Part shown: piece by piece, positions 1 through 64,000 of the stretch | Layout: each line of letters opens with the position of its first letter | Numbering within the stretch: the first letter of the stretch is position 1 | Assembly: GCA_916610825.1 (NCBI GenBank) | Contig: OU744446.1 | Span: forward strand, 21,027,223-21,091,222 | DNA: 64,000 bases | Reading direction: 5' to 3' | DNA from: Haliclystus octoradiatus | Lineage: Eukaryota > Cnidaria > Staurozoa > Stauromedusae > Haliclystidae | The notes under the pieces: generated by a model | Seen by the model: only the letters and a program-made list of their open reading frames with translations | Database searches by the model: none | Told to the model about the DNA's origin: nothing | Made by a program: the position numbers and the translations under genes

Positions 1-149
1 AATATAATCAATTAACCATTTCTGATTTAAGTATGACGTCACAAATAATATGTTCTTGTGTAATATTTTATGACGAATCTGAATATTCAAGAATCGAATG
101 GTGTGATGACAATAGCTAGCAATATTAGCATAAAAATGTTTTTAAAGTA

Positions 150-3100
150 GCTATGACGTCACAAACACAATTATAAGCAATTTACTGCTTCGACTGTAGT
201 TATGACGTCACAATCACAATGCTCTTGTGTATATTTTTATGGCAATTCCGAATATCATAGTTTTGAATTGATCAAATAATATTAACTGGCAATATAAGCG
301 ACTAACCATTTCTGGAGTAGGTATGACGTCACAAAGTAAATGTTCTTGTGTAGTATTTTATGAAGAATTTGAATACTCAAGTTTTAAATTGTGTGATGAC
401 AATAACTAGCAATATAAGCATAAAAATGTTTTTGAAATAGGTATGACGTCACAAACACAATTTTAAGCATTTTACTGGTTCCATTGTAGTTATGACGTCA
501 CAATAACAACTTTCTTGTGTTGAATTTAATCGCAATTCCGAATATCATAGTTTTGAAATGAGCAAATAATATTAACTGGCAATATGTATCAATTAACCAT
601 TTCTGAAGTAGGTATGACGTCACAAATAATATGTTCTTGTGTTGTATTTTATGAAAAATCTGAATATTCAAGAATTGAATTGTGTGATGACAATAACCAG
701 CAATATAAGCATAAAAATGTTTTTAAAATATCTTTGACGTCACAAACACAGTTTTAAGCATTTTACTGTTTCGATTGTAGTTATGACCTCACAATCACAA
801 TGCTCTTCTGTAGAATTTTGTGGCAATTCCGATTATCATAGTTTTGAAAAGATCAAAACGTCACAAACACAATTATAAGCAATTTACTGTTTCGACTGCA
901 GTTATGACGTCACAATCACAATGTTCTTGTGTATATTTTTATGGCAATTCCGAATATAATAGTTTTGAATTGATCAAATAATATTAACTGGCAATATAAG
1001 CAACTAATGATTTCTGAAGTAGGTATGACGTCACAAAGTAAATGTTCTTGTGTAGTATTTTATGAAGAATTTGAATACTCAAGTTCTAAATTGTGTGATG
1101 ACAATAACTAGCAATATAAGCATAAAAATGTTTTTGAAATAGGTATGACGTCACAAACACAATTTTAAGCATTTTACTGGTTCCATTGTAGTTATGACGT
1201 CACAATAACAACTTTCTTGTGTTGAATTTAATCGCAATTCCGAATATCATAGTTTTGAAATGAGCAAATAATATTAACTGGCAATATGTATCAATTAACC
1301 ATTTCTGAAGTAGGTATGACGTCACAAATAATATGTTCTTGTGTTGTATTTTATGAAAAATCTGAATATTCAAAAATTGAATGGTGTGATGACAATAACC
1401 AGCAATATAAGCATAAAAATGTTTTTAAAATAGCTTTGACGTCACAAACACAGTTTTAAGCATTTTACTGTTTCGATTGTAGTTATGACCTCACAATCAC
1501 AATGCTCTTCTGTAGAATTTTGTGGCAATTCCGATTATCATAGTTTTGAAAAGATCAAAACGTCACAAACACAATTATAAGCAATTTACTGTTTCGACTG
1601 TAGTTATGACGTCACAATCACAATGTTCTTGTGTATATTTTTATGGCAATTCCGAATATAATAGTTTTGAATTGATCAAAAAATATTAACTGGCAATATA
1701 AGCAACTAACCATTTCTGAAGTAGGTATGACGTCACAAAGTAAATGTTCTTGTGTAGTATTTTATGAAGAATTTGAATACTCAAGTTTTAAATTGTGTGA
1801 TGACAATAACTAGCAATATAAGCATAAAAATGTTTTTGAAATAGGTATGACGTCACAAACACAATTTTAAGCATTTTACTGGTTCCATTGTAGTTATGAC
1901 GTCACAATAACAACTTTCTTGTGTTGAATTTAATCGCAATTCCGAATATCATAGTTTTGAAATGAGCAAATAATATTAACTGGCAATATGTATCAATTAA
2001 CCATTTCTGAAGTAGGTATGACGTCACAAATAATATGTTCTTGTGTTGTATTTTATGAAAAATCTGAATATTCAAGAATTGAATGGTGTGATGACAATAA
2101 CCAGCAATATAACCATAAAAATGTTTTTAAAATAACTTTGACGTCACAAACACAGTTTTAAGCATTTTACTGTTTCGATTGTAGTTATGACCTCACAATC
2201 ACAATGCTCTTCTGTAGAATTTTGTGGCAATTCCGATTATCATAGTTTTGAAAAGATCAAAACGTCACAAACACAATTATAAGCAATTTACTGTTTCGAC
2301 TGCAGTTATGACGTCACAATCACAATGTTCTTGTGTATATTTTTATGGCAATTCCGAATATAATAGTTTTGAATTGATCAAATAATATTAACTGGCAATA
2401 TAAGCAACTAATGATTTCTGAAGTAGGTATGACGTCACAAAGTAAATATTCTTGTGTAGTATTTTATGAAGAATTTGAATACTCAAGTTCTAAATTGTGT
2501 GATGACAATAACTAGCAATATAAGCATAAAAATGTTTTTGAAATAGGTATGACGTCACAAATACAATTTTAAGCATTTTACTGGTTCAATTGTAGTTATG
2601 ACGTCACAATAACAACTTTCTTGTGTTGAATTTAATCGCAATTCCAAATATCATAGTTTTGAAATGAGCAAATAATATTAACTGGCAATATGTATCAATT
2701 AACCATTTCTGAAGTAGGTATGACGTCACAAATAATATGTTCTTGTGTTGTATTTTATGAAAAATCTGAATATTCAAAAATTGAATGGTGTGATGACAAT
2801 AACCAGCAATATAAGCATAAAAATGTTTTTAAAATAGCTTTGACGTCACAAACACAGTTTTAAGCATTTTACTGTTTCGATTGTAGTTATGACCTCACAA
2901 TCACAATGCTCTTCTGTAGAATTTTGTGGCAATTCCCATTATCATAGTTTTGAAAAGATCAAAACGTCACAAACACAATTATAAGCAATTTACTGTTTCG
3001 ACTGTAGTTATGACGTCACAATCACAATGTTCTTGTGTATATTTTTATGGCAATTCCGAATATAATAGTTTTGAATTGATCAAAAAATATTAACTGGCAA

Positions 3101-3540
3101 TATAAGCAACTAACCATTTCTGAAGTAGGTATGACGTCACAAAGTAAATGTTCTTGTGTAGTATTTTATGAAGAATTTGAATACTCAAGTTTTAAATTGT
3201 GTGATGACAATAACTAGCAATATAAGCATAAAAATGTTTTTGAAATAGGTATGACGTCACAAACACAATTTTAAGCATTTTACTGGTTCCATTGTAGTTA
3301 TGACGTCACAATAACAACTTTCTTGTGTTGAATTTAATCGCAATTCCGAATATCATAGTTTTGAAATGAGCAAATAATATTAACTGGCAATATGTATCAA
3401 TTAACCATTTCTGAAGTAGGTATGACGTCACAAATAATATGTTCTTGTGTTGTATTTTATGAAAAATCTGAATATTCAAGAATTGAATGTTGTGATGACA
3501 ATAACCAGCAATATAAGCATAAAAATGTTTTTAAAATAGC
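150..3540. repeat. 702-bp higher-order repeat within sat1
   Basis: Near-identical blocks recur every 702 bp; the same submonomer junction starts at about 611, 1313, 2015, 2717 and 3419. Each block contains a diagnostic fusion, GATCAAAACGTCACAAACAC, at about 851, 1553, 2255 and 2957, where part of one submonomer is deleted into the next. A similar fusion occurs at about 7205. Low divergence among blocks implies recent amplification. Confidence 0.9.
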
Positions 3541-6500
3541 TATGATGTCAAAAACACAATTTTAAGCATTTTGCTGTTTCGATTGTAGTTATGACCTCAC
3601 AATCACAATGCTTTTCTGTAGAATTTTGTGGCAATTCCGAATATCATGGATTTGAAATGATCAAATAATATTAACTGGCAATATAGTCAATTAACCATTT
3701 CTGAAGTAGGTATGACGTCACAAATAATATGTTCTTGGGTAGTATTTTATAACGAATCTGGATATTGAAGAATTGAATGGTGTGATGACAATAACTAGCA
3801 CTTTGAGTATTCAAGCATTTTTGAATTAGGTATGACGTCAAAAATTATATGTTCTTGTGTAGTATTTTATGACGAATTTGAATATTCAAGAATTGAATGG
3901 TGGGATGACAATAACTAGCAATATAAACATAAAACTGCTTTTAAAGTAGCTATGACGTCAAAAATACAATTTTAAGCATTTCACTGTTTCGATTGTAGTT
4001 ATGACGTCAAAAAAACAATGCTCTTCTGTAGAGTTTTGTGGCAATTCCGAATATTCCAAATAATATTAACTGGCAATATAAGCAATTAACCATTTCTGAA
4101 GTAGGTATGACGTCGAAATAACAATGTTATTGTGTAGAATTTTGTGGCAATTCCGAATATCATAGTTTTGAAATGATCAAATTACATAAACTAGCAAAAC
4201 CAATTAACCATTTCTGTAGTTATTATGACGTAACAAAAAATGTTCTGGTGTAGCATTTCATGATGAATCTGAATATTCAAGTTTTAAATGGTCTGATGAC
4301 AATAGCTAGCAATATAAGCATATAAATGTTTTTAAAGTAGCTATGACGTCACCAACACAATTATAAGAAATTTACTGTTTCGACTGTAGTTATGACCTCA
4401 CAATCACAATGCTCTTCTGTAGAATTTTGTGGCAATTCGGAATATCATAGTTTTGTAATGATCAAATTACATAAACTAACAAAACCAACTAACTATTTCT
4501 GAAGTATGTATGACGTCACAAATAATATGTTCTTGTGTAATATTTTATGACGAATCTGAATACTCAAGAATTGAATGGTGTGATGACAATAGCTAGCAAT
4601 ATAAGCATAAAAATGTTTTTAAAGTAGCCATGACGTCACAAATACAATTACAAGCAATTTACTGTTTCGACTGTAGTTATGATGTCACAATCACAATGTT
4701 CTTGTGTATAATTTTATGGCAATTCCGAATATCATAGTTTTGAAATGATCAAATAATATTAACTGGCAAGATAAGCAACTAACCATTTCTGAAGTAGGTA
4801 TGACGTCACAAAGTAAATGTTCTTGAGTAGTATTTTATGAAGAATTTGAATATTCATATTTTGAATTGTGTAATGACAATAACTAGTAATATAAGCAGAA
4901 AAATGTTTTTGAAATAGCTATGACGTCACAAACACAATTTTAAGCATTTTACTGTTTCCATTGTAGTTATGACGTCACATTCACAATATTCTTGTGTTGA
5001 ATTTTATTGCAATTCCGAATTTCATAGTTTTGAAATGACCAAATAATTTTAACTGGCAATATAATCAATTAACCATTTCTGAAGTAGGAATGACGTCACA
5101 AATAATATGTTCTTTTGTAGTATTTTATGACGAATCTGAATATTAAAGAATTGAATGGTGTGATGACAATAACTAACAATATATGCATAAAATTGTTTTC
5201 AAAATAGCTATGACGTCACAAACACAATTTTAAGGATTTTACTGTTTGTATTGTAGTTATGACGTCACAAAAACATTGCTCTTCTGTGGAGTTTTGTGGC
5301 AATTCCGAATATTCTAAATAATATTAACTGGCAATATAAGCAATTAACCATTTCTGAAGTAGGTATGACGTCGTAATAACAATGTTCTTGTGTAGAATTT
5401 TATTGCGATTCCGAATATCATAGTTTTGAAATGATCAAATTAGATAAACTAGCAAAACCAATTAACCATTTATGAAGTAATTATGACTTCACAAAAAAAT
5501 GTTCTGGTGTTGTATTTTATGATGAATCTGAATATTCAAGTTTTAAATGGTCTGATGACAATAGCTAGCAATATAAGCATAAAAATGTTTTTAAAGTAGC
5601 TATGACGTCACCAACACAATTATAAGCAATTTACTGTTTCGATTGTAGTTATGACGTCACAACCACAATGCTCTTCTGTAGACTTTTGTTGCAATACTGA
5701 ATATCATAGTTTTGAAATGATCAAATTACATAAACTAGCAAAACCAATTAATTAACCATTTCTGAAGTATTTATGACGTCACAAAAAAATGTTCTGGTGT
5801 AGTATTTTATTATGAATCTGAATATTCAAGTTTTAAATGGTCTGATGACAATAGCTAGCAATATAAGCATAAAAATGTTTTTAAAGTAGCTATGTCATCA
5901 CCAACACAATTATAAGCAATTTACTGTTTCGACTGTAGTTATGACGTCAAAGTCACAGTTTTAAGCATTTTACTGTTTCGATTGTAGTTGTGACGTCACA
6001 AACACAATGCTCTTCTGTAGAATTTTATGGCAATTCCGAATATCATAGTTTTGAAATGATCAAATAATATTAACTGGCAATATAAGCAATTAACCATTTC
6101 TGAAGTAGGTATGACGTCAAAAATAATATGTTATTGTGTAGTATTTTTTGACGAATTTGAATATTCAAGAATTGAATGGTGGGATGACAATAACCAGCAA
6201 TATAAGCATAAAAATGTTTTTAAAATAGCTATGACGTTACAAATACAATTTTAAGCATTTCACTGTTTCGATTGTTGTCATGACGTCACAAACACAATGC
6301 TCTTCTGTAGACTTTTGTGGAATTTCCGATTTTCATAGTTTTGAAATGATCAAATTACATTAACTAGCAACACCAATTAATTATTTCTGAAGAAATTATG
6401 ACGTCAGAAAGAAAATGTTCGTGTGTAGTACTTTATGACGAATCTAAAAATTCAAGTTTAAAATGGTCTGATGACAAGAACTAGTAATATAAACATAAAA

Positions 6501-8359
6501 CTGTTTTTGAAGTAGCTACGACGTCACAAATACAATTTTAAGCAATTTACTGTTTCGACTGTAGTTATGACGTCACAATCACAATGTTCTTGTGTAGAAT
6601 TTTATGGTAATTCCGAATATCATAGTTTTGAAATGGTCAAATAATATTAACTGGCAATATAAGCAATTAACCATTTATGAAGTAGGTATGACGTCACAAA
6701 GTAAATGTTCTTGTGTACTATTTTATGAAGAATCTGAATATTCAAATTTTGAATGGTGTGATGACAATAACTAGCAATATAAGCATAAAAATGTTTTTAA
6801 AATTGCTATGACGTCACAAACACAGTTTTAAGCATTTTACTGTTTCGATTGTAGTTATGAAGTCACAATGCTCTTCTGTAGAATTTTGTGGCAATTCCGA
6901 ATATCATAGTTTTGAAATGATCAAATTACATAAACGAGCAAAACCAATTAACCATTTCTGAAGTAGGTATGACGTCACAAAGATAATGTTCTGGGGTAGT
7001 ATTTTATGACGAATCTGAATATTCAAGAATTGAATGGTGTGATGACAATAAAAGGCAATATAAGCATAAAAATGTTTTAAAATAGCTATGACGTCACAAA
7101 CACAGTTTCAAGCATTTTACTGTTTCGATTGTAGTTATGACCTCACAATCACAATGATCTTCTGTGGAATTTTGTGGCAATTCCGATTATCATAGTTTTG
7201 AAATGATCAAAACGTCACAAACACCATTATAAGCACTTTACTGTTTCGACTGTAGTTATGACGTCACAATCACAATGTTCTTGTGTAGAATGACGTAAGA
7301 AACACAATTTTAAGCATTTTACAGTTTACATTGTAGTTATGACGTCACAATCACAATATTCTTGTGTAGAATTTTATGGCACATCCGAATTTCATAGTTT
7401 TGAAATGATCAAATAATATTAACTGGCAATATAAGCAATTAACCATTTTTGAATTAGGTTTGACGTCAAAAATAATATGTTCTTGTGTAGTATTTTATGA
7501 CGAATTTGAATATTCAAGAATTGAATGGTGGGATGACAGTAACTAGCAATATAAACATAAAAATGTTTTTAAAGTAGCTATGACTTCACCAACACAATTA
7601 TAAGCATTTTACTGTTTCGACTGTAGTTATGACGTCACAATCACAGTTTTGAGCATTTTACTGTTTCGATTGTAGTTATGACGTCACAAAAAATTGCTCT
7701 TCTGTAGAGTTTTGTGGCAATTCCAAATATTCCAAATAATATTAACTGGCAATATAAGCAATTAACCATTTCTGAAGTAGGTATGACGTCGAAATAACAA
7801 TGTTATTGTGTAGAATTTTGTGGCAATTCCGAATATCATAGTTTTGAAATGATCAAATTACATAAACTAGCAAAACCAATTAACCATTTCTGGAGTAATT
7901 ATGACGTCACAAATAATATGTTCTTGTGTAGTATTTTATGACGAATCTGAAAATTCAAGAATTGAATGGTGTGATGACAATAACTAGCAATATAAGTATA
8001 AAAATGTTTTTAAAATAGCTATGACGTCACAAACACAATTACAATCATTTTACTGTTTCGATTGTAGTTATGACGTCACAATCACAATGCTCTTCTGTAG
8101 AATTTTGTGGCAATTCAGAATATCATAGTTTTGAAATTATCAAATTACATAAACTAGCAAAACCAATTAACCATTTCTGAAGTAATTATGACGTCACAAA
8201 AAAATGTTATGGTGTAGTATTTTATGATGAATCTGAATATTCAAGATTTAAATGGTCTAATGATAATAGCTAGCAATATAAGCATAAAAATGTTTTAAAG
8301 TAGCTATGACGTCACCAACACAATTATAAGCAATTTACTGTTTCGACTGTAGTTATGAC

Positions 8360-11300
8360 GTCACAATCACAATATTCTTGTGTAGAATTTTATGGCACAT
8401 CCGAATTTCATAGTTTTGAAATGATCAAATAATATTAACTGGCAATATAAGCAATTAACCATTTTTGAATTAGGTTTGACGTCAAAAATAATATGTTCTT
8501 GTGTAGTATTTTATGACGAATTTGAATAGTCAAGAATTGAATGGTGGGATGACAATAACTAGCAATATAAACATTAAAATGTTTTTAAAGTAGCTATGAC
8601 ATCACCAACACAATTATAAGCAATTTACTGTTTCGACTGTAGTTATGACGTCACAATCACAGTTTTAAGCATTTTACTGTTTCGATTGTAGTTATGACGT
8701 CACAAAAAATTGCTCTTCTGTAGAGTTTTGTGGCAATTCCGAATATTCCAAATAATATTAACTGGCAATATAAGCAATTAACCATTTCTGAAGTAGGTAT
8801 GACGTCGAAATAACAATGTTATTGTGTAGAATTTTGTGGCAATTCCGAATATCATAGTTTTGAAATGATCAAATTACATAAACTAGCAAAACCAATTAAC
8901 CATTTCTGAAGTAATTATGACGTCACAAATAATATGTTCTTGTGTAGTATTTTATGACGAATCTGAAAATTCAAGAATTGAATGGTGTGATGACAATAAC
9001 TAGCAATATAAGTATAAAAATGTTTTTAAAATAGCTATGACGTCAAAAACACAATTATAATCATTTTACTGTTTCGATTGTAGTTATGACGTCACAATCA
9101 CAATGCTCTTCTGTAGAATTTTGTGGCAATTCCGAATATCATAGTTTTGAAATTATCAAATTACATAAACTAGCAAAACCAATTAACCATTTCTGAAGTA
9201 ATTATGACGTCACAAAAAAATGTTATGGTGTAGTATTTTATGATGAATCTGAATATTCAAGATTTAAATGGTCTAATGATAATAGCTAGCAATATAAGCA
9301 TAAAAATGTTTTAAAATAGCTATGACGTCACCAACACAATTATAAGCAATTTACTGTTTCGACTGTAGTTATGACGTCACAATCACAATGTTCTTGTGTA
9401 GGATTTTATGGCAATTCCGAATATCATAGTTTAGAAATGATCAAATAATATTTACTGGCAATAAAAGCAATTAACCATTTCTGAAGTAGGTATGACGTTA
9501 CAAAGAAATGTTCTTGTGTAGTATTTTATGACGTATCTGAATATTCAAGAATTGAATGGTGTGATGACAATAACTAGCAATATAAGCATAAAAATGTATT
9601 TAAAATAGCTATGACGTCACAAACACAATTATAATCATTTTACTGTTTCCATTGTAGTTATGACGTCACAATCACAATATTCTTGTGTTGAATTTTAGGG
9701 CGATTCAGAATATCATAGTTTTGAAATGATCAAATAATATTAACTGGCAATATAATAAATTAACCATTTCCGAAGTAGATATGACGTCACAAAGAAAATG
9801 TTCTTGTGTAGTATTTTATGACGAATCTGAATATTCAAGAATTGAATGGTGTGATGACAAAAACTAGCAATATAAGCATAAAAATGTTTTTAAAATAGCT
9901 ATGACGTCACAAACACAATAATAATCATTTTACTGTTTCGATTGTAGTTATGACGTCACAATCACAATGCTCTTCTGTAGAATTTTGTGGCAATTCCGAA
10001 TATCATAGTTTTGAAATTATCAAATTACATAAACTAGCAAAACCAATTAACCATTTCTGAAGTAATTATGACGTCACAAAAAAATGTTATGGTGTAGTAT
10101 TTTATGATGAATCTGAATATTCAAGATTTAAATGGTCTAATGATAATAGCTAGCAATATAAGCATAAAAATGTTTTAAAGTAGCTATGACGTCACCAACA
10201 CAATTATAAGCAATTTACTGTTTCGACTGTAGTTATGACGTCACAATCACAATGCTCTTGTGTAGGATTTTATGGCAATTCCGAATATCATAGTTTAGAA
10301 ATGATCAAATAATATTTACTGGCAATAAAAGCAATTAACCATTTCTGAAGTAGGTATGACGTCAAAAATAATATGTTCTTGTGTATTATTTTATGACGAA
10401 TTTGAATATTCAAGAATTGAATGGTGGGATGACAATAGCTAGCAATATAAACATAAAAATGTTTTTAAAGTAGCTATGACATCACCAACACAATTATAAG
10501 CAATTTACTGTTTCGACTGTAGTTATGACGTCACAATCACAGTTTTAAGCATTTTACTGTTTCGATTGTAGTTATGACGTCACAAAAAATTGCTCTTCTG
10601 TAGAGTTTTGTGGCAATTCCGAATATTCCAAATAATATTAACTGGCAATATAAGCAATTAACCATTTCTAAAGTAGGTATGACGTCGAAATAACAATGTT
10701 ATTGTGTAGAATTTTGTGGCAATTCCGAATATCATAGTTTTGAAATGATCAAATTACATAAACTAGCAAAACCAATTAACCATTTCTGAAGAAATTATGA
10801 CGTCAAAAATAATATGTTCTTGTGTAGTATTTAATGACGAATCTGAAAATTCAAGAATTGAATGGTGTGATGACAATAACTAGCAATATAAGTATAAAAA
10901 TGTTTTTAAAATAGCTATGACGTCACAAACACAATTATAATCATTTTACTGTTTCGATTGTAGTTATGACGTCACAATCACAATGCTCTTCTGTAGAACT
11001 TTGTGGCAATTCCGAATATCATAGTTTTGAAATTATCAAATTACATAAACTAGCAAAACCAATTAACCATTTCTGAAGTAATTATGACGTCACAAAAAAT
11101 GGTATGGTGTAGTATTTTATGATGAATGTGAATATTCAAGTTTTAAATGGTCTGATGACAATAGCTAGCAATATAAGCATAAAAATGTTTTTCAAGTAGC
11201 TATGACGTCACCAACACAATTATAAGCAATTTACTGTTTCGACTGTAGTTATGACGTCACAATCACAATATTCTTGTGTAGAATTTTATGGCACATCCGA

Positions 11301-13440
11301 ATTTCATAGTTTTGAAATGATCAAATAATATTAACTGGCAATATAAGCAATTAACCATTTTTGAATTAGGTTTGACGTCAAAAATAATATGTTCTTGTGT
11401 AGTATTTTATGACGAATTTGAATATTCAAGAATTGAATGGTGGGATGACAATAACTAGCAATATAAACATTAAAATGTTTTTAAAGTAGCTATGACATCA
11501 ACAACACAATTATAAGCAATTTACTGTTTCGACTGTAGTTGTGACGTCACAATCACAGTTTTAAGCATTTTACTGTTTCGATTGTAGTTATGACGTCACA
11601 AAAAATTGCTCTTCTGTAGAGTTTTGTGGCAATTCCGAATATTCCAAATAATATTAACTGGCAATATAAGCAATTAACCATTTCTGAAGTAGGTATGACG
11701 TCGAAATAACAATGTTATTGTGTAGAAATTTGTGGCAATTCCGAATATCATAGTTTTGAAATGATCAAATTACATAAACTAGCAAAACCAATTAACCATT
11801 TCTGAAGTAATTATGACGTCACAAATAATATGTTCTTGTGTAGTATTTTATGAAGAATCTGAAAATTCAAGAATTGAATGGTGTGATGACAATAACTAGC
11901 AATATAAGTATAAAAATGTTTTTAAAATAGCTATGACGTCACAAACACAATTATAATCATTTTACTGTTTCGATTGTAGTTATGACGTCACAATCACAAT
12001 GCTCTTCTGTAGAATTTTGTGGCAATTCCGAATATCATAGTTTTGAAATTATCAAATTACATAAACTAGCAAAACCAATTAACCATTTCTGAAGTAATTA
12101 TGACGTCACAAAAAAATGTTATGGTGTAGTATTTTATGATGAATCTGAATATTCAAGATTTAAATGGTCTAATGATAATAGCTAGCAATATAAGCATAAA
12201 AATGTTTTAAAATAGCTATGACGTCACCAACACAATTATAAGCAATTTACTGTTTCGACTGTAGTTATGACGTCACAATCACAATGTTCTTGTGTAGGAT
12301 TTTATGGCAATTCCGAATATCATAGTTTAGAAATGATCAAATAATATTTACTGGCAATAAAAGCAATTAACCATTTCTGAAGTAGGTATGACGTTACAAA
12401 GAAATGTTCTTGTGTAGTATTTTATGACGTATCTGAATATTCAAGAATTGAATGGTGTGATGACAATAACTAGCAATATAAGCATAAAAATGTTTTTAAA
12501 ATAGCTATGACGTCACAAACACAATTATAATCATTTTACTGTTTCCATTGTAGTTATGACGTCACAATCACAATATTCTTGTGTTGAATTTTAGGGCGAT
12601 TCCGAATATCATAGTTTTGAAATGATCTAATAATATTAACTGGCAATATAATAAATTAACCATTTCTGAAGTAGATATGACGTCACAAAGAAAATGTTCT
12701 TGTGTAGTATTTTATGACGAATCTGAATATTCAAGAATTGAATGGTGTGATGACAATAACTAGCAATATAAGCATAAAAATGTTTTTAAAATAGCTATGA
12801 CGTCACAAACACAATAATAATCATTTTACTGTTTCGATTGTAGTTATGACGTCACAATCACAATGCTCTTCTGTAGAATTTTGTGGCAATTCCGAATATC
12901 ATAGTTTTGAAATGATCAAATTACATAAACTAGCAAAACCAATTAACCATTTCTGAAGTATTTATGACGTCACAAAAAAATGTTTTTGTGTAGTATTTTA
13001 TGACGAATTTGAATATTCAAGAATTGAATAGTGGGATGACAATAACCAGCTATATAAGCGTAAAAATTTTTTAAAATAGCTATGACGTCACAAACACAAT
13101 TTTAAGGATTTTACTGTTTCGATTGTAGTTATGACGTCACAATCACAATGCTCTTCTGTAGAATTTTGTGGCAGTTCCGATTATCATAGTTTTGAAATGA
13201 TCAAATAATATTAACTGGCAATATAATCAATGAACCATTTCTGAAGTAGGTATGACGTCACAAATAATATGTTCTTGTGTAGTATTTTATGACGAATCTG
13301 ATTATTCAAGAATTGAATGGTGTGATGACAATAACTAGCATTATATGCATAAAAATGTTTTTCAAGTAGCTATGACGTCACCAACACAATTATAAGCAAT
13401 TTACTGTTTCGACTGTAGTTATGACGTCACAATCACAATA
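8360..13440. repeat. About 2.9-kb higher-order repeat within sat1
   Basis: A marker variant (ATATTCTTGTGTAGAATTTT followed by a GGCACATCC variant) lies near 7350, 8360, 11265 and 13435. A second marker (GGATTTTATGGCAATTCCG followed by TAGTTTAGAAATG) lies near 9396, 10260 and 12290. The 8360-to-11265 and 9396-to-12290 spacings are both about 2.9 kb, and the intervening submonomer variants repeat in the same order. The final copy is incomplete. Confidence 0.75.
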
Positions 13441-15065
13441 TTCTTGTGTAGAATTTATGGCACTTCCGAATTTCATAGTTTTGAAATGATCAAAAAATAT
13501 TAACTGGCAATATAAGCAATTAACCATTTTTGAATTAGGTTTGACGTCAAAAATAATATGTTCTTGTGTAGTATTTTATGACGAATTTGAATATTCAAGA
13601 ATTGAATGGTGGTTTGACAATAACTAGCAATATAAATATAAAAATGTTTTTAAAGTAGCTATGACATCACCAACACAATTATAAGCAATTTACTGTTTCG
13701 ACTGTAGTTATGACGTCACAATCACAGTTTTAAGCATTTTACTGTTTCGATTGTAGTTATGACGTCACAATCACAATATTCTTGTGTTGAATTTTATGGC
13801 AATTCCGAATATCATAGTTTTGAAATGATCAAATAATATTAACTGGCAATATAATCAATTTACCTGTTCTGAAGTAGGTATGACGTCACAAAGAAAATTT
13901 TCTTGTGTAGTATTTTATGACGAATCTGAATATTCAAGTTTTAAATGGTCTGATGACAATAACTAGCAATTTAAGCATTCAAACCATTTTTGAATTAGGT
14001 ATGACAATTAAAATACATTTTTGTTGTGTATTATTTTATGACGAATTTGAATATTAAAGAATTGAATTGTGGGATGACAATAACCAGCAATATAAGCCTA
14101 AAAATGCTTTTAAAATAGCTATGACGTTACAAATACAATTTTAAGCATTTCACTGTTTCGATTGTTGTTATGACGTCACAAACACAATGCTCTTCTGTAG
14201 ACTTTTGTGGCAATTCCGAATATCATAGTTTTGAAATTTTCAAATAATATTAACTGGCAATATAAGCAATTTTCCAATTTTGAATTAGGTTTGACATCAA
14301 AAATAATATGTTCTTGTGTAGTATTTTATGACGAATCTGAATATTCAAGAATTGAATGGTGTGATGACAATAACTAGCAATATAAGCATAAAAATGTTTT
14401 TAAAATAGCTATGACGTCACAAACACAATTATAATCATTTTACTGTTTCGATTGTAATTATGACGTCACAATCACAATGCTCTTCTGTATAATTTTGTGG
14501 CAATTCCAAATATCATACTTTTGAAATGATTAAATTACATAAACTAGCAAAACCAACTAACCATTTCTGAAGTAATTATGACGTCACAAAAAATGTTCGA
14601 GTGTAGTGTTTCATGATGAATCTGAATATTCAAGTTTTGAATGGTGTGATGACAATAACTAGTAATATAAGCAAACAATGTTTTTCAAATAGCTATGACG
14701 TCACAAACACAATTTTAAGCATTTTACTGTTTCGATTGTAGTTATGACGTCACAATCACAATGTTCTTGTTTTGAAATTTATGGCGATTCCGAATATCAT
14801 AGTTTTGAAATGATCAAATAATATTAACTGGCAATATAATCAATTAACCATTTCTGAAGTAGGTATGACGTCACAAAAAAATGTTCTGGTGTAGTATTTT
14901 ATGATGAATCTGAATATTCAAGTTTTGAATGGTGTGATGACAATAACTAGCAATATAAGCAAAAATATGTTTTTAAAATAGCTATGACGTCACAGAAACA
15001 ATTTTAAGCATTTTACTGTTTCGATTGTAGTTATGACATCACAATCACAATGTTCTTTTGTTTAA

Positions 15066-15921
15066 ATATATGTTGTTTCTACTTATTCTCTTTATCCACT
15101 CTCGACATCCTTATTGGGACAGTTTGGGGTTCTTTTGATGTAAATTATTCTTGGTTAGTGTCAATTAATGTTGTAAATTTTCAATTTTCAGGAGAGGTCA
15201 ACTGCGTAGCCTCCAGACGTCGCTATGGTGTATTTAAAATAGATGTGGCTATGTGTGTCATTACTTGGATCTGTTCTAAACTAGTTTATGATAGATTACT
15301 CTATTGATTTTAAGATTATTGATTTCATAATATTTACTGGTTATATTTGATCATTATTAATTGGAGTGTGTCCTGTTCCAAATATATCACTTGGTATAAA
15401 CTATTAGTCAACTAATGCTAATTTGGTTCATATTTACTTGTATTTGGAGTGATAATTACATAACATTTGAAAAGAAGATCCATGTACCTTTCTGGTACAG
15501 TTGTTATGAATGTATGTGGTCATATTTTTCAAAGTTACAGTTCTTTGTTGCCTTTCCAGTAGATTGACATAATATTTTATTGTGTTGTTGTTTTATGTCC
15601 AAAATTTTTTAGAGGCCGTTTCAGAGGGGGGTGGTTCTCGTAAATTTTCCAAAAATCCCCCATTAATAGAGAGACCATTCCGTAATTCCCACTATTTTTT
15701 AAAAAGATTGCGAGAGATTTTTCCATCAGCTTAGCATTGACTACTTAGCTGTTTATGGATTTCATGGGAGCAGGAATTACACTTACTGTTCTTCTCTAAA
15801 ACACCACGACGGTAATGATACACCAAATTAGTTTTACCTATAAACTAATGTTATTTCCACAACAAACAGGAGCAGACTACACCGTCCAACATGCATGGTT
15901 TGATTTTCAGAACAAGCAGCA
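15066..15921. other. Non-satellite insert interrupting sat1
   Basis: Sat1 stops inside a submonomer after ACAATGTTCTT and a fragment of the matching submonomer resumes at about 15922 with TTGTTCTTGTGTTGAAATTT, so this segment looks inserted into the array. It is AT-rich except for a short stretch near 15610-15680. An 85-codon open frame from 15050 overlaps the satellite edge and has no recognisable domain. No transposase, clear terminal repeats or target duplication could be found. Confidence 0.5.
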
Positions 15922-15978
15922 CCACATTGTTCTTGTGTTGAAATTTAGGGCGATTTCGAATATCATAGTTTTGAAATT
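15922..15978 (+). repeat. sat1 fragment at the sat2 edge
   Basis: Matches the sat1 submonomer with TTCTTGTGTTGAATTTTAGG, then GAATATCATAGTTTTGAAAT, and passes directly into sat2 sequence near 15977. Confidence 0.8.
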
Positions 15979-16655
15979 GAAACAATGCCTGATTCCCATG
16001 GGAATTTGAATTTCACAAAAACAGTTCAAAATGAGTACATCAAAGCCTAATTCCCATGGGAATTCAAATTTGACAAAAACAGTCCAAAATGACAAATAAC
16101 TATGCCTAATTACCATGGGAATTCGAAATGACCAAAAACGATGCCTGATTCCCAGGGGAATTTGAATTTCACAAAAACAGTTCAAAATGACTAAATCAAA
16201 GCCTAATTCCCATGGGAATTCAGATTTGACAAAAACAGTCCAAAATGACAAATAACTATGCCTAATTACCATGGGAATTCGAAATGACCAAAACCAATGG
16301 CTAATTTCCATGGGAATTCAAATTTGACAAAAACAGTCCAAAATGACAAAAAACAATGCCTAACTCTCATGGGAATTCGAAATGACCAAAAACAATGCCT
16401 GATACCCATGGGAATTCAAATTTCACAAAAACATTTCAAAATGACTAAATCAAAGCCTAATTCCCATGGGAATTCCAAATGACCAAGGACAATGTCTAAT
16501 TCTCATGGGAATTCAAATTTGACAAAAACAGTCCGAAATGACCAAAAACAATGCTTAATTATCATGGGAATTCGAAATGACCAAAAAAAATGCCTGATTC
16601 CCATGGGAATTCGAATTTCACAAAAACAGTTCAAAATGACTAAATCAGATTCGTC
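15977..16655 (-). repeat. sat2 palindromic satellite, reverse orientation
   Basis: Tandem units of about 50-60 bp, each centred on AATTCCCATGGGAATT, which contains an NcoI site and often abuts an EcoRI site. In this block the spacer reads GACCAAAAACAATGCCT, the reverse complement of the spacer in the next block. Open frames across it are simple translations of the repeat. Confidence 0.92.
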
Positions 16656-16706
16656 ATAAAATACTATACAAGAACATTTTCTTTGTTACGTCATACCTAC
16701 TTCAAC
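16640..16706 (-). repeat. Inverted sat1 fragment at the sat2 inversion point
   Basis: CAGATTCGTCATAAAATACT and the following bases to TACGTCATACCTACTTC are the reverse complement of the common sat1 submonomer from GAAGTAGGTATGACGTCAC to the GACGAATCTG segment. It lies exactly where sat2 changes orientation. Confidence 0.85.
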
Positions 16707-16719
16707 TACTACTATCATT

Positions 16720-17645
16720 TTGGACTGTTTCTGTCAAATTTGAATTCCCGAGGGAATTAAACATTGTTTTTGGTCATTTTGAACTGTATTTATCAAATTA
16801 GAATTCCCATGGGAATTAGGCATTGTTTTTGGTCATTTCGGACTGTTTTTGTCAAATTTGAATTCCCATGGGAATTAGGCATTTCTCTTTGTAATTTTGA
16901 ACTGTATTTGTCAAATTTGAATTCAAATGGGAATTATAGGTTCTCTTTGGTTTAGTCATTTTGAAATGTTTTTGTGAAATTCGAATGTCCATGGGAATTA
17001 GGCATAGTTTTTGGTCATTTCGAATTCCCATAAGAATTGGGCATTGTCTTTTATCATTTTGGACTGGTTTTGTCAAATTTGAATTTCCCGAGGGAGTTAA
17101 GCATTGTTTTTGGTTATTTTGAACTGTATTTGTCAAATTCAAATTCTCATGGGAATTAGGCATTGTTTTTGGTCATTTCGAATTCCCATGGGAATTAGGC
17201 ATTGTTCTTTGTCATTTTGGACTGTTTTTGTCAAATTTGAATTCCCGAGGGAATTAAGCATTGTTTTTGGTCATTTTGAACTGTTTTTGTCAAATTCGAA
17301 TTCCCGAGAGAATTAAGCATTGTTTTTAATTATTTTGAACTGTATTTGTCAAATTCGAATTCCATGGGAATTAGGCATTGTTCTTTATCATTTTGGACTG
17401 TTTTTGTCAAATTTGAATTCCCGAGGGAATTAAACATTGTTTTTGGTCAGTTTGAACTGTATTTATCAAATTAGAATTCCCATGGGAATTAGGCATTGTT
17501 TTTGGTCACTTCGAACTGTTTTTGTCAAATTTGAATTCCCATGGAAATTAGGCATTGTTTTTTGTCATTTTGAACTGTTTTTGTCAAATTCGAATTCCCA
17601 TTTGAAATGGAAATTTCTCTTTGTAATTTTGAACTGTATTTGTTC
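16720..17645 (+). repeat. sat2 palindromic satellite, forward orientation
   Basis: Units read AATTCCCATGGGAATTAGGC followed by ATTGTTTTTGGTCATTT. A variant has CCCGAGGG in place of CCCATGGG and is followed by AAGCATTG. The block at about 16978-17160 carries the same order of variants (CATAAGAATTGGGCATTG, then CCCGAGGGAGTTAAGC) as three blocks in the array at the right end of the window. Confidence 0.92.
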
Positions 17646-23659: not shown

Positions 23660-24170
23660 CCAGAGCGTGCTGTGACTACATTTGGATGCAATGGAATATT
23701 ATCACCATCATAAATATTCTTATCAGATACGTTAGTACCATCGAATGGTGTTGATGGTGAAGACTCAACCACTGGCTTCCAACGATTAATTGCAACAGTA
23801 TCTGCTGTGTCTCCTTTTTGATGACGTAGTACCTTTCATGACGTGATATAACTTCATATGGGATGGTGTAAGGTGCCTCCAAAGGACGACGTGGACGATC
23901 AACACGGATCCATACTCTCCGACATTTATGTAATTCAGGAGGTACATAAGAGGATATTGTTCTTTTATTAGCAGGTGGTTTAGATTTAACAGTTTTAAAA
24001 TGCTCTTGCAATGTTTGTAATAAATGATGAGAAGTTAATAAATCTTTATCTTCAATACATACACGAGGTATTAGTGGTTTTAAACATGTCAATAGCTCAT
24101 AAGGTGAAATACCATCATCATCTGGTAAAACTCGAAAAGCCAACAGTGCTGAAGGAGAGGTATCATTTCA
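23660..24170 (-). pseudogene. Gypsy pol, C-terminal tail after integrase
   Basis: The frame covers the end of a Ty3/Gypsy polyprotein: a VLPDDDGISPYELL segment (the substrate-site region that follows integrase), then VWIRVDRPRRPLEAPYT and YEVISRHERYYVIK, matching the integrase C-terminal domain of animal Gypsy elements. It is out of frame with the integrase core just upstream on the minus strand, so at least one frameshift lies near 24150. A further frameshift after VIKKETQQ is likely. No 3' LTR was identified beyond 23.66 kb. Confidence 0.8.
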
Positions 24171-24790
24171 TGAAGTATTTGCGGCTATTAAAATAGATTT
24201 TAGAGTGTGATGCATACGCTCTACCAAGCCGTTAGTTTGGGAGTGGTAGGCAGTTGTTCGCAGCTTAATAAATCCAATTAGTTTGCCGACCTCATGCATG
24301 AGTTCACTTTCAAAGTTTGAGCCACGATCCGTAATGACATAAAGGGGTGCGGAATACCTAGATACCCATTCTCTTACAAAAGCTTCAGCTGCAACAGGAG
24401 CAGTTTGGTCAACAATCAAAATGGCCTCAACCCAGCGCGTGCAACGATCAATCATGGTTAATACATATCTATATGTGGTGGTAATATTTGTCAATGAACA
24501 AGTTGACGCAGGTACTGAAAGATGTACAATCTGCAAACGATCAGCTGGTAAATTATATGGTAAAAGATGGACTAATGGGATGGCAAGTGATTTTAGTCTG
24601 TTGGCACTGTAAACAATGTTGTACCCAAATATTTATATCTTTGCGCATTTTAGACCAATAAAATCTTTCATTAATTAGTTTAAAAGTAGCTGAACGGCCA
24701 TAATGACCTGAATTATGAAAACTCTCAAAACGGTAGAACGATAAGAAAGGGGAACAAAGGACGCGGAAAAATTTCTGATGTCTCACACCA
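24168..24790 (-). pseudogene. Gypsy integrase (zinc-binding and core)
   Basis: The N-terminal HHCC zinc finger is visible: H and H in FHNSGHYGRS, followed by NERFYW and C-x2-C in HCLQCQQTK. The RNase H-fold core follows with YVLTMIDRCTRWVEAI, the second catalytic aspartate in ITDRGSNFES and the glutamate in NGLVERMHHTLK, with AYHSQTNG between. The position where the first catalytic aspartate (usually H-x-D-x-VGP) is expected reads HLSVPAS, so that residue appears lost. The zinc finger and core lie in different frames. The enzyme is therefore dead. Confidence 0.88.
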
Positions 24791-28084: not shown

Positions 28085-28121
28085 TTAAAGTTTTAAACGT
28101 ATTATTAGTATCATATCAACT

Positions 28122-30245
28122 ATGGATTATGCAAGTTCATTACCAATCCAAGGCACTCCTAGAGATGAGAGAAGAAGGACCACTCAATCTCTAAGAGCAG
28201 TAACAATTGACAATAATTTATTACATGATCGGCCTGTAAGAAGCCGCGCCTCAAGCGACGGGTTTCAATCAAGAAGACGTCAGGCAATGCAAGCGCTTGA
28301 ATTAGCAAAATTCAAACGTGATAATAAACTTATAATAGCCCAAGAAGAAGCGACATTAGCTATTCAAAAGAAAATGAATGCCGCTGATTTAGAGATGAAA
28401 AAAGCAGAATTAGAACTAAAATACTGTGAGGACTTTGTACTAGATAATGACGATAACCAATCCTTCAATTTATATGAAGATATTAAATCAAACGAAGATA
28501 AGAAATGTAACGTGCAAAATTGGGTCCAATCTATTAACGATGGCAATATCAAAACAGAGGATAATCACAGTGATAACAACTTAACATCCTTAGTAGCTAA
28601 GTTAAGTCTTCCTAAAGTCAAGCCACCGGAATTCTCTGGTAATCCTGTTGATTATCCGCGTTTCATAAAAACATTTGAACAAATGATAAAGGATAAAGGG
28701 CTAACCGATAATGAAAAACTCTGGCATTTAGAAAACTGTTGTATAGGAGAAGCTAAAACCTCAATAAGAAACTGTCTTGGTTTAGAGGGTGGTTTAGAAC
28801 GAGCACTGAAAAAACTAAAACAACGCTACGGAAATGCTTTTGAAGTTGCCGCTGCAGCAATCAAAACAGTAATAGCAGGAGGGCAAATTGAACGTCATGA
28901 TGCAAAAGCTATTCAACGATTTTCTGATAATATTCAAGATTGTGTTGACACGCTAAATCAAATCGGTTATGAAGCAGACATGAACTCAAACATAACTTTG
29001 CAAAAGGTTGTCAGCAAAATGCCTGATTCTATGAGAGATAGATGGTCAGCGACCGCAATAAAAATACGGAGAACCGGACGAAATCCGTTGCTTTCAGATA
29101 TTTCAAATTTCATGTCCACTCAAGCTGAAGCCATGAATGATCCTATATTTGGAATAATTAATGACAATCGTCGAAAAGCTCATAAAGTATATTCAACACA
29201 AACAACGGAATCTGAGACTATACACAGTATTGAACCAACGACAAATTATAACAACAACAGAAAACAATGCGTTATTTGTAACGAGGAACACAGATCAAAT
29301 AAGTGTGCACAATTTATTGAAAAATCTCAACAACAGCGTGAAAACTTTGTCAGAGAAAATAAGTTATGCTACAACTGTCTAGGCTTCAATCATACAGCCA
29401 GGCAATGCAAAAGTCCTAATCGTTGTACGATGTGCAAACAACTACATCATTCATTACTTCATCGTCTATCGTTGCCTAGCAACACATCCGCAGCGGTAGT
29501 TGAAACAGTCGAAGATACCGTTAATTCAGATTATTCAGACGAAAACAATAGCACTTATGAAACGGTCGGTGTAACAAACACAAATGAGCGTTCTATTGTA
29601 CAAATTGTCCCAATCAAATTAGAAGCACGGAATGGCAAAAGTATAGAAACGTATGCACTTTTAGACACGGGTTCGTCAATAACTATGTGTGGTAATGCTA
29701 TTGCTAAACAACTAGAAATAAGTGGTGAACGGCAAACATTGCAATTTTCAACAGTGGCAGAACAAAGGGAGAAGGTCAGCGCTTTTACGACCTCACTAAC
29801 AGCAAAATCAGTAGAGGACGATGTAACAATTGATCTACCAAAAGTCTGGGTAATAAACAAATTAAACGTCCCTATGACAACGCTTCCGCGATCATTTGAC
29901 CTCTCAAAATTCCCGCATTTAAAAGGCGTGAAGTTCCCTGAAGCACACAATGTGAATGAAGTGGGTTTAATAATAGGAACTAATGTGCCACGAGCATTAG
30001 TGCACACAGAGGTAAAAGCCGGCAAGCAACAGCAACCAATTGCAGTAAAAACTATGTTTGGATGGTGTTTAATAGGGTGCCCGGACAAATCAACAACAAA
30101 TGTTCCCAATAAATGTGCCAATGATGGATACGCAGTTAAGTCAGATAAAGAAACCGCTATAAACATCATACATGACAAGAAATGGAAACGTTTACCACAG
30201 CAGAGATTAGAGCGAAACAAACCATCGTTTTCTTACAGGCCTTAA
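28122..30245 (+). CDS. BEL/Pao gag-protease polyprotein, truncated pol
   Basis: A 707-codon intact frame. Residues about 55-110 are charged and helical (coiled-coil-like). The BEL gag core starts near residue 165 with LPKVKPPEFSGNPVDYPRFI, the DUF1759-type domain that assembles the particle. Zinc-binding Cys/His clusters follow (CVICNEEHRSNKC, CYNCLGFNHTARQC, CTMCKQLHHSLLH). An aspartic protease is at about residue 514 with ALLDTGSSITMC (DTG active site), followed by GLIIGTNVP and TMFGWCLIGC, typical of the pre-RT region of BEL pol. The frame ends soon after, at RPL-stop; full BEL polyproteins are more than twice as long. It could supply gag and protease but depends on relatives for reverse transcription and integration. 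Confidence 0.93.
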   Translation: MDYASSLPIQGTPRDERRRTTQSLRAVTIDNNLLHDRPVRSRASSDGFQSRRRQAMQALELAKFKRDNKLIIAQEEATLAIQKKMNAADLEMKKAELELKYCEDFVLDNDDNQSFNLYEDIKSNEDKKCNVQNWVQSINDGNIKTEDNHSDNNLTSLVAKLSLPKVKPPEFSGNPVDYPRFIKTFEQMIKDKGLTDNEKLWHLENCCIGEAKTSIRNCLGLEGGLERALKKLKQRYGNAFEVAAAAIKTVIAGGQIERHDAKAIQRFSDNIQDCVDTLNQIGYEADMNSNITLQKVVSKMPDSMRDRWSATAIKIRRTGRNPLLSDISNFMSTQAEAMNDPIFGIINDNRRKAHKVYSTQTTESETIHSIEPTTNYNNNRKQCVICNEEHRSNKCAQFIEKSQQQRENFVRENKLCYNCLGFNHTARQCKSPNRCTMCKQLHHSLLHRLSLPSNTSAAVVETVEDTVNSDYSDENNSTYETVGVTNTNERSIVQIVPIKLEARNGKSIETYALLDTGSSITMCGNAIAKQLEISGERQTLQFSTVAEQREKVSAFTTSLTAKSVEDDVTIDLPKVWVINKLNVPMTTLPRSFDLSKFPHLKGVKFPEAHNVNEVGLIIGTNVPRALVHTEVKAGKQQQPIAVKTMFGWCLIGCPDKSTTNVPNKCANDGYAVKSDKETAINIIHDKKWKRLPQQRLERNKPSFSYRP

Positions 30246-59681: not shown

Positions 59682-61271
<1,590 letters not shown>

Positions 61272-62163: not shown

Positions 62164-64000
62164 AATGTCAAATTTGAATTCCCATGGGAATTATAGGTTC
62201 TCCCTTTGGTTTAGTCATTTTGAAATGTTTTTGTGAAATTCGAATGCCCATGGGAATTAGGCATAGTTTTTGGTCATTTCGAATTCCCATAAGAATTGGG
62301 CATTGTTTTTTATCATTTTGGACTGGTTTTGTCAAATTTGAATTTCCCGAGGGAGTTAAGCATTGTTTTTGGTTATTTTGAACTGTATTTGTCAAATTCG
62401 AATTCCCATGGGAATTAGGCATTGTTTTTGGTCATTTAGAATTCTCATGGGAATTAGGCATTGTTCTTTGTCATTTTCGACTGTTTTTGTCAAATTTGAA
62501 TTCCCGAGGGAATTAAGCATTGTTTTTGGTCATTTTGAACTGTTTTTGTCAAATTCGAATTCCCGGGGGAATTAAGCATTGTTTTTAAATATTTTGAACT
62601 GTATTTGTCAAATTCGAATCCCCATGGGAATTAGGCATTGTTTTTATGAAATTCGAATTCCCATGGTAATTATAGGTTCCCTTTGGTTTAGTCATTTTGA
62701 AATGTTTTTGTGAAATTCGAATGCCCATGGGAATTAGGCATAGTTTTTAGTCATTTCGAATTCCCATAAGAATTGGGCATTGTTTTTTATCATTTTGGAC
62801 TGGTTTTGTCAAATTTGAATTTCCCGAGGGAGTTAAGCATTGTTTTTGGTTATTTTGAACTGTATTTGTCAAATTCGAATTCCCATGGGAATTAGGCATT
62901 GTTTTTGGTCATTTAGAATTCTCATGGGAATTAGGCATTGTTCTTTGTCATTTTGGACTGTTTTTGTCAAATTTGAATTCCCGAGGGAATTAAGCATTGT
63001 TTTTGGTCATTTTGAACTGTTTTTGTCAAATTCGAATCCCCATGGGAATTAGGGATTGTTTTTATGAAATTCGAATTCCCATGGTAATTAGGCATTTCTT
63101 TTCGGTCATTTCGAATTCCATGAAAATTAGGCATTGTTCTTTATCATTTTGGACTATTTTTGTCAAATTTGAATTCCCGAGGGAATTAAACATTGTTTTT
63201 GGTCATTTTGAACTGTATTTATCAAATTAGAATTCCCATGGGAATTAGGCATTGTTTTTGAACATTTCGGACTGTTTTTCTAAAATTTAAATTCCCATGG
63301 GAATTAGGCATTGTTCTTTTTCATTTTGAACTGTTTTTGTCAAATTCGAATTCCCATGAGAAATAGAAATTTCTCTTTGTCATTTTGAACTGTATTTGTC
63401 AAATTTGAAATCCCATGGGAATTAGGCTTTGGTTTAGTCATTTTGAAATGTTTTTGTGAAATTCGAATGCCCATGGGAATTAGGCATAGTTTTTGGTCAT
63501 TTCGAATTCCCATAAGAATTGGGCATTGTTTTTTATCATTTTGGACTGTTTTTGTCAAATTTGAATTTCCCGAGGGAATTAAGCATTGTTTTTGGTTATT
63601 GTGAACTGTATTTGTCAAATTCGAATTCCCATGGGAATTAGGCATTGTTTTTGTTCATTTCGAATTCCCATGGGAATTAGGCATTGTTTTTGGTCATTTC
63701 GAATTCCTATGGGAATCAGGCATTTTTTTGGTCCTTTCGAATATACATGAGAAATAGGCATTCTTTGTGGTAATTTCGGACTGTTTTTGTCAATTTTGAA
63801 TTGCCATGGGAAATAGGCATGGTTCTTGGTCATTTGGAATTTTCATGGGATTTAGGCTTTGATTTAGTCATTTTGAAATGCATTTATGAAATTCGAATTC
63901 CTATGAGAATTAGGCATTGTTCTTGGTCATTTGGAATTCCCATGGGAATTAGGCATTGTTCTTTGTCATTTTGAACTGTTTTTTTCAAATTAGAATTCCT
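62163..64000 (+). repeat. sat2 palindromic satellite, second array
   Basis: Same AATTCCCATGGGAATT units as at 15.98-17.65 kb, forward orientation, running off the right edge. A composite block of about 478 bp recurs at 62236 and 62715 and partly at 63462: CGAATGCCCATGGGAATTAG, CATAAGAATTGGGCATTG, CCCGAGGG variant, then CCCATGGG. Confidence 0.95.

What the first reader, a model, noticed from the sequence alone, without database searches (positions are those of the whole stretch)
1..15065. A 15-kb satellite built around the CREB/ATF site TGACGTCA
Seen: every submonomer starts with TATGACGTCACAA, so a perfect CRE half-site pair recurs at 50-120-bp spacing across the array, an estimated 150 sites. 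The rest of each submonomer drifts more than the palindrome. Known: TGACGTCA binds CREB/ATF bZIP dimers, and CpG methylation inside it blocks binding. Inference: the array could act as a sink for bZIP factors, a transcribed satellite, or a centromere-like protein-binding repeat (compare the CENP-B box idea). This is the best candidate in the window for an undescribed DNA-based system.
Basis: partly seen in the sequence, partly recalled or inferred. Interest (0 to 1): 0.75.

Follow-up and report, generated by a model that had tools for sequence, protein, structure and literature searches.

The report
CRE-bearing satellite beside putative centromere arrays
A repeated DNA sequence carrying the CREB/ATF binding palindrome TGACGTCA was found at one place on each of four large chromosomes, beside or between larger repeat blocks that may mark the centromere; it looks like a new but ordinary satellite DNA whose palindrome is only partly conserved.

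Summary
The array is real: window 1-15065 holds 126 exact TGACGTCA (127 in the window; shuffles 0.73). It is the right end of a ~61-kb array on C1 (420 exact sites). The ~290-bp unit is A (120) + B (49, apparently a 120-mer lacking its middle) + C (121). Three complete exact-word listings (25, 16, 97 hits) fall only on C1, C2, C4 and C8, one region each, of nine contigs above 16 Mb. On C2, C4 and C8 the array borders a large block of a second satellite, S59; on C1 it lies between two S59 blocks. S59 is a centromere candidate. "Built around the CRE" is partly right: the palindrome is the best-conserved register in C1 (1 of 281 shifts), good in C2 (18), ordinary in C4 (110) and C8 (192); the C-site is lost by a different change in C2, C4 and C8. 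No CENP-B box in the C1 array. Best reading: a new centromere-flanking satellite, amplified by unequal exchange; ATF/CREB docking to nucleate heterochromatin is plausible but untested. S59 carries a perfect EBF/COE palindrome.

The parts
1..15072 (+). CRE satellite array (right end of the C1 array, first site C1:20,981,508, end C1:21,042,294), units A(120)/B(49)/C(121)
15923..15977 (+). stray fragment of a C-type monomer in the gap before S59
   Evidence: 89% over 55 bp
15998..16644 (-). S59 satellite, minus orientation (short piece)
16645..16695 (-). A-type CRE monomer fragment at the point where S59 changes strand
   Evidence: 92% over 51 bp
16715..17601 (+). S59 satellite, plus orientation (short piece), with ATTCCCNNGGGAAT palindromes
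62166..64000 (+). S59 satellite, plus orientation; further S59 matches follow on C1 to 22.05 Mb

Best explanation
A satellite DNA family not found in my paper searches (here 'CRE satellite') that borders, or lies in a gap of, the likely centromere blocks (satellite S59) of four chromosomes. Shown: tandem A/B/C units, higher-order repeats, four regions with S59 nearby. Inferred: it arose from a 120-bp monomer that carried TATGACGTCACAA; one copy lost its middle (B), a three-part unit formed, and unequal exchange or break-induced replication amplified it separately on each chromosome. Inferred: it works passively, as packaging DNA of pericentromeric heterochromatin. TGACGTCA is mainly an inherited box; in C1 and C2 it may be held by a bound dimer, in C4 and C8 there is no sign of that.
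For: 126 sites in 1-15065; 127 in the window against 0.73 by shuffling. Same family on C1, C2, C4, C8 only, in three complete exact-word listings of 25, 16 and 97 hits, reversed controls 0. In 60 samples (compared) S59 borders the array on C4 (junction inside L074), C2 (at most 3.3 kb) and C8 (at most 5.8 kb). On C1 a 1.6-kb S59 piece lies 0.9 kb away, S59 resumes at window 62166 (47 kb away), and another S59 block lies to the left at 20.64-20.85 Mb. No CRE satellite or S59 match in the outer samples of C2 (6 of 6, 28.18-28.8), C4 (5 of 5, 16.904-17.4; one is a 5-bp repeat) and C8 (4 of 4, 2.0-3.03). B aligns as a 120-mer lacking its middle. CRE-dead variants are amplified too: 44 TGACCTCA and 19 TGACGTCG of 199 scored C monomers in C1.
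Against: The C1 palindrome register is the best conserved of 281, and the pooled within-array mean of the four arrays is reached by only 8 of 281 shifts: more than a purely passive repeat needs. Pericentromere is inferred from S59 alone: no CENP-A, H3K9me or Hi-C data; unplaced contigs also start with satellites, so the real centromere DNA may be elsewhere. C5, C6, C7, C10, C11 show no CRE satellite in the word listings; neither satellite was found in 40 spaced samples of C10 and C11. Exact words can miss diverged copies.
Confidence: 0.62

Rival explanations
1. ATF/CREB-docking heterochromatin nucleator: bZIP dimers of the ATF-2 type bind the CREs in bulk and recruit H3K9 methylation/HP1, so the array sets or bounds heterochromatin beside the centromere, possibly released by stress kinases.
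For: C1 and C2 conservation, pooled 8 of 281 shifts, B-site TGACGTCA in all four array consensuses (C2, C4, C8 from 9.0, 8.0 and 7.3 kb of array only). One-sided position at S59 edges on C2, C4, C8. [quoted passage not shown] fission-yeast Atf1 recruits Clr4 and Swi6 at the mat locus (PMC10863984, passages).
Against: No excess conservation in C4 and C8; the C-site is lost in C2, C4, C8 by different changes; the B-site of C8 ranks 274 of 281. In fission yeast the Atf1 effect is at the mat locus: under MAPK activation H3K9me3 and Swi6 fell there but not at the pericentromere (PMC10863984, passage). No binding data; the genome's bZIP genes were not examined.
Confidence: 0.22
2. CENP-B-box-like centromere element: a DNA-binding protein or short-dyad DNA structure at TGACGTCA helps CENP-A loading.
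For: A box in most monomers; S59 also carries a dyad; short dyad symmetries are reported in centromeres lacking CENP-B boxes (PMC8997354, passages).
Against: Not found by word listing on five of nine large contigs; lies at the edge of S59 on C2, C4, C8; no CENP-B box in the C1 array.
Confidence: 0.07
3. bZIP sink: the arrays titrate CREB/ATF proteins away from promoters.
For: 420 sites counted on C1; perhaps ~3,000 in all by my extrapolation from sampled densities.
Against: Background sites are probably as many or more (3 in 84,900 sampled bases); CRE-dead monomers amplify freely.
Confidence: 0.03
4. Wholly selfish or neutral repeat: TGACGTCA is one stretch of an old monomer and its conservation in C1 is an accident of recent amplification.
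For: C4 and C8 show no excess; other words such as TGACAATA and CAATATAA are about equally conserved in C1; C1 copies share higher-order repeats, so rows are not independent; between array consensuses 30 of 281 shifts do as well as the CRE register.
Against: The three homologous CREs of C1 peak together (1 of 281 shifts), and C2 tends the same way (18 of 281).
Confidence: 0.4

Closest known systems
Alpha satellite with CENP-B boxes (PMC8997354, passages)
   Same: Monomers in higher-order units with a recurring box that is intact in only some monomer classes
   Different: The box is a bZIP palindrome, not a CENP-B box (0 found in the C1 array); found on four of nine large contigs; lies beside another satellite
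Tribolium madens major/minor satellites with macro-dyad symmetries (PMC13081366, abstract and outline)
   Same: ~110-120-bp monomers, two satellites close together in likely (peri)centromeres, strand reversals (S59 on C1; CRE array on C2 near 27.871 Mb)
   Different: The two beetle satellites derive from one element; CRE satellite and S59 are not shown to be related; sequences were not compared with the beetle's; no FISH here
ATF-2/Atf1-dependent heterochromatin (PMC3444692, PMC10863984, passages)
   Same: ATF-2 binds TGACGTCA; heterochromatic setting proposed here
   Different: There genetic and binding evidence exists; here hundreds of sites per array with no binding evidence
Mouse heterochromatin nanodomains nucleated at PAX3/9 motifs (PMC8986797, passages)
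   Same: Transcription-factor motifs proposed to seed H3K9me3
   Different: Different factor; supported there by ChIP and modelling

Membership tests
Satellite DNA | Head-to-tail units over many kb | tested here: met
   552 submonomers, all plus strand, 50.8 kb covered in the C1 stretch read; TRF periods 49, ~120, ~290
Satellite DNA | More than one locus | tested here: met
   C1, C2, C4, C8
Higher-order-repeat satellite | Regular multi-monomer units repeated with higher identity | tested here: met
   290-bp A+B+C unit; 1263-bp steps along C1 at 20.9976-21.0001 Mb
Centromeric satellite | Present at every centromere of the complement (not universal: chromosome-specific satellites exist, recalled) | tested here: not met
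   Word listings give four of nine large contigs; diverged copies could be missed
Centromeric satellite | CENP-A nucleosomes | not testable with these tools
   no ChIP data
CENP-B-box satellite | NTTCGNNNNANNCGGGN box (recalled) | tested here: not met
   0 on both strands of the C1 array; C2, C4, C8 not scanned
CREB/ATF response array | Consensus CRE TGACGTCA | tested here: met
   420 on C1; consensus given for ATF-2 in PMC3444692
CREB/ATF response array | CRE under selection within the repeat | tested here: inconclusive
   shifts reaching the observed value: C1 1, C2 18, C4 110, C8 192, pooled 8, between arrays 30, each of 281
CREB/ATF response array | Occupied by bZIP protein in cells | not testable with these tools
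   no ChIP data
Macro-dyad (peri)centromere | Arrays in inverted halves around a centre | tested here: inconclusive
   S59 minus at 20.64-20.66 Mb and plus from 21.1 Mb on C1; local strand switch at window 16644/16715; CRE strand switch on C2 near 27.871 Mb (listing incomplete); whole regions not read

The most novel reading that the evidence does not exclude
This genome uses two neighbouring satellites as docking platforms for two different dimeric transcription factors: a megabase-scale EBF/COE-site satellite (S59) as the centromere body and a CREB/ATF-site satellite as its one-sided border, where ATF-2-type proteins nucleate heterochromatin in a stress-dependent way.
Probability: 0.1. Interest if true: 0.78.

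Novelty: new member of a known kind. Interest (0 to 1): 0.4.

Why it matters
If the CREs are occupied, the arrays would be a natural, sequence-defined test of whether ATF/CREB proteins seed pericentromeric heterochromatin: the arrays differ in CRE density (about 8.3 per kb of array on C1, 6.1 in 9 kb of C2, 4.6 in 8 kb of C4, 4.7 in 7.3 kb of C8; from counts) and so act as a dose series. Even if passive, the pair CRE satellite/S59 gives markers for candidate centromeres of a chromosome-scale genome.

Tried and rejected
Rfam: 0 matches in the window at gathering score. Pfam on six open frames of the window, all outside the array: retroelement domains in three (DUF1759 with a below-cutoff aspartyl protease; reverse transcriptase; integrase core), no match in three. 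CENP-B box: 0 in the C1 array. In the first conservation test the C-site fell on the model edge: there C1 had 1 of 288 and C4 254 of 288 shifts; I rotated the unit and repeated it on four arrays, and report both. Rows kept: hits of 270 bases or more, of 265 or more, identical rows once (C1 141 rows/110 unique, C4 13/12, C2 22/14, C8 17/17). C2, C4 and C8 were read only in part (9.0, 8.0, 7.3 kb). Core-letter counts use 528 of 552 submonomers, those whose alignment starts within three bases of the unit start, which favours intact cores. DNA-query searches of the genome score only the best candidates and could not show absence, so I relied on exact words with fewer than 100 hits. The word (664 hits) was listed only in part. 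An S59 word was too strict (21 hits, C1 and C4 only) or over the listing limit (130 hits, 100 listed), so S59 on C5, C7, C10 and C11 stays open; 40 spaced 300-base samples of C10 and C11 showed neither satellite; C5 and C7 were not sampled. The C8 locus is patchy: a sample at 3.075 Mb had no satellite. The organism was not identified: TTAGGG at five of nine large-contig starts (C8 reads N) and two of three ends fetched and nine large contigs would fit sea squirts with nine chromosomes (abstract starts in listing), but that is only a guess. Paper searches for satellite DNA with TGACGTCA, satellite/CREB/ATF/centromere, ascidian centromere satellites, satellite/palindrome/CREB and satellite/ATF/heterochromatin listed no paper that I recognised as describing this repeat; of these I saw only the listings with abstract starts, apart from PMC3444692 (passages).

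Full report
1. The observation. TGACGTCA occurs 127 times in the window and 126 times in 1-15065; 100 dinucleotide shuffles average 0.73, maximum 4. Tandem Repeats Finder reports overlapping periods of 49, about 120 and about 290 bp over the stretch. The exact 13-mer TATGACGTCACAA is found 94 times in 1-15065, so the claim that every submonomer starts with it is too strong; 165 submonomer matches lie in window 1-16000, one of them a stray beyond the array.

2. The whole array. The window is C1:21,027,223-21,091,222 of a 261.9-Mb, 33-contig genome. Six neighbouring 10-kb stretches show the first TGACGTCA at C1:20,981,508 and the end at window 15,072, with 420 exact sites. The C1 stretch read holds 552 submonomers (202 C, 185 B, 165 A), all on the plus strand, with gaps of 1.6, 4.8 and 3.3 kb; these carry long open frames, the larger two looking like non-LTR retroelements by eye, not confirmed by a library search. 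Submonomer consensuses align as a 120-bp A, a 121-bp C and a 49-bp B that matches the first ~20 and last ~29 bases of the others, i.e. a monomer without its middle.

3. Other loci. A 290-base query finds a second array on C4 on the minus strand and single listed matches on C2 and C8; queries from C2 and C8 show arrays there. Three exact words that C1 lacks or nearly lacks were listed completely: 25 hits on C2, C4, C8, 16 on C1, C4, C8, 97 on C2, C4, C8; the reversed controls were 0. The regions are C1 20.981-21.042, C2 27.82-28.18, C4 16.807-16.904 and C8 3.05-3.114 Mb; C8 is patchy (no satellite in a sample at 3.075 Mb). Nine contigs exceed 16 Mb: C1, C2, C4, C5, C6, C7, C8, C10, C11 (together 257.4 of 261.9 Mb). 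So by word listing the family is on four of nine; diverged copies may be missed.

4. Surroundings. I read 60 samples of 500-1600 bases and compared them with the satellites. A second satellite, S59 (59- and 39-bp units; window 15,998-17,601 and 62,166-64,000), covers 88-100% of the samples C1 20.70-20.85 and 21.18-21.80, C2 27.60-27.818, C4 15.90-16.79, C6 15.93-16.10 and C8 3.12-3.60 Mb. The CRE array borders this block on C4 (junction inside L074), on C2 (at most 3.3 kb) and on C8 (at most 5.8 kb), and the samples on its other side contain neither satellite. On C1 the case is weaker: the nearest S59 is a 1.6-kb piece 0.9 kb away; S59 resumes 47 kb further right at window 62,166, and a left block is seen at 20.64-20.85 Mb, with a sample at 20.95 Mb free of satellites. 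So the C1 array lies in a gap of an S59-rich region of about 1.4 Mb. C6 has S59 but no CRE satellite in the listings. This is what one expects of a centromere-flanking satellite, but the centromere itself is inferred, and some satellite DNA is on unplaced contigs.

5. Is it built around the CRE? For each array I aligned units to a rotated 281-column model and compared the three CRE registers with all circular shifts (C1 whole, 8.0 kb of C4, 9.0 kb of C2, 7.3 kb of C8). C1: mean 0.977 against 0.917, only the true register reaches it (1 of 281). C2: 18 of 281. C4: 110 of 281. C8: 192 of 281. Pooled over the four arrays: 8 of 281. Between the four array consensuses 197 of 281 columns are invariant; the B-site keeps 8 of 8, the A-site 7 of 8 (C4 TGACATCA), the C-site 5 of 8, with C2 TGATGTCA, C4 TGACGTGA and C8 TGGCGTCA; 30 of 281 shifts do as well as the CRE register. 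Three different losses at one site argue that this site is not needed; the B-site consensus kept in all four is compatible with constraint but also with ancestry, and within C8 its copies vary much (rank 274 of 281). Within C1, 145 of 162 scored A, 150 of 167 B and 123 of 199 C sites are intact, and two dead C variants (TGACCTCA 44, TGACGTCG 19) have been multiplied. Copies share recent amplification, so these counts are not independent. An earlier run with the C-site on the model edge gave C1 1 and C4 254 of 288.

6. How it most likely works. I favour a flank of the centromere that was amplified by exchange and packs as heterochromatin; this mechanism is inferred. The most interesting rival is docking of ATF-2-type proteins, which have documented roles in heterochromatin: ATF-2 binds TGACGTCA and dATF-2 is required for heterochromatin in flies (PMC3444692, passages); Atf1 and Pcr1 bind near mat3M and Atf1 recruits the silencing machinery in fission yeast, but the effect reported there is at the mat locus and not at the pericentromere (PMC10863984, passages). 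A sink is unlikely to dominate: sampled non-satellite DNA gave 3 sites in 84,900 bases, so background sites would number in the thousands, as do the extrapolated satellite sites.

7. A second palindrome. S59 carries ATTCCCNNGGGAAT 25 times in the window, 0 in 100 shuffles, and in 10 of 15 repeat samples examined (not in the three C8 samples, the C13 start or the C1 20.5-Mb repeat). That is the published EBF consensus (PMC4512700, passages). A CRE-monomer fragment sits where S59 changes strand (window 16,645-16,695). Two neighbouring satellites with perfect dimer-type palindromes may be coincidence or may reflect the dyad symmetries described for centromeres (PMC8997354, passages; PMC13081366, abstract).

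8. Verdict. A real, multi-chromosome satellite, not found in my paper searches, of a known kind. The CREB/ATF reading is possible but has conservation support in only two of four arrays.

Noticed in passing
window 15998-16644 (-), 16715-17601 (+), 62166-64000 (+): S59 satellite carries the EBF/COE palindrome ATTCCCNNGGGAAT, 25 in the window against 0 in 100 shuffles; S59 fills samples on C1, C2, C4, C6, C8.
   Followed up: partly
window 16645-16695 (-): A CRE-monomer fragment lies at the strand switch between two S59 stretches.
   Followed up: partly
C2 near 27.871 Mb (L049): The CRE array on C2 changes from mostly plus to minus strand (listing incomplete); L049 shows pieces of both strands.
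   Followed up: no
C1:20985797-20987348, 20987798-20992637, 21020353-21023603: Inserts with long open frames, the larger two looking like non-LTR retroelements by eye, interrupt the CRE array.
   Followed up: no
window 59678-61270: A 1.6-kb almost pure TATTAT (ATT) microsatellite.
   Followed up: no
window 24168-24632 (-), 28089-30245 (+), 33616-35109 (+): Retroelement open frames: integrase core, DUF1759 with a weak protease match, reverse transcriptase.
   Followed up: no
contigs C12 and C16 (L058, L061): Unplaced contigs of 0.93 and 0.53 Mb start with what looks by eye like one further satellite on opposite strands (lengths).
   Followed up: no
C1:20500001-20500500 (L105): A different 119-bp tandem repeat to the left of the S59 block of C1.
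   Followed up: no
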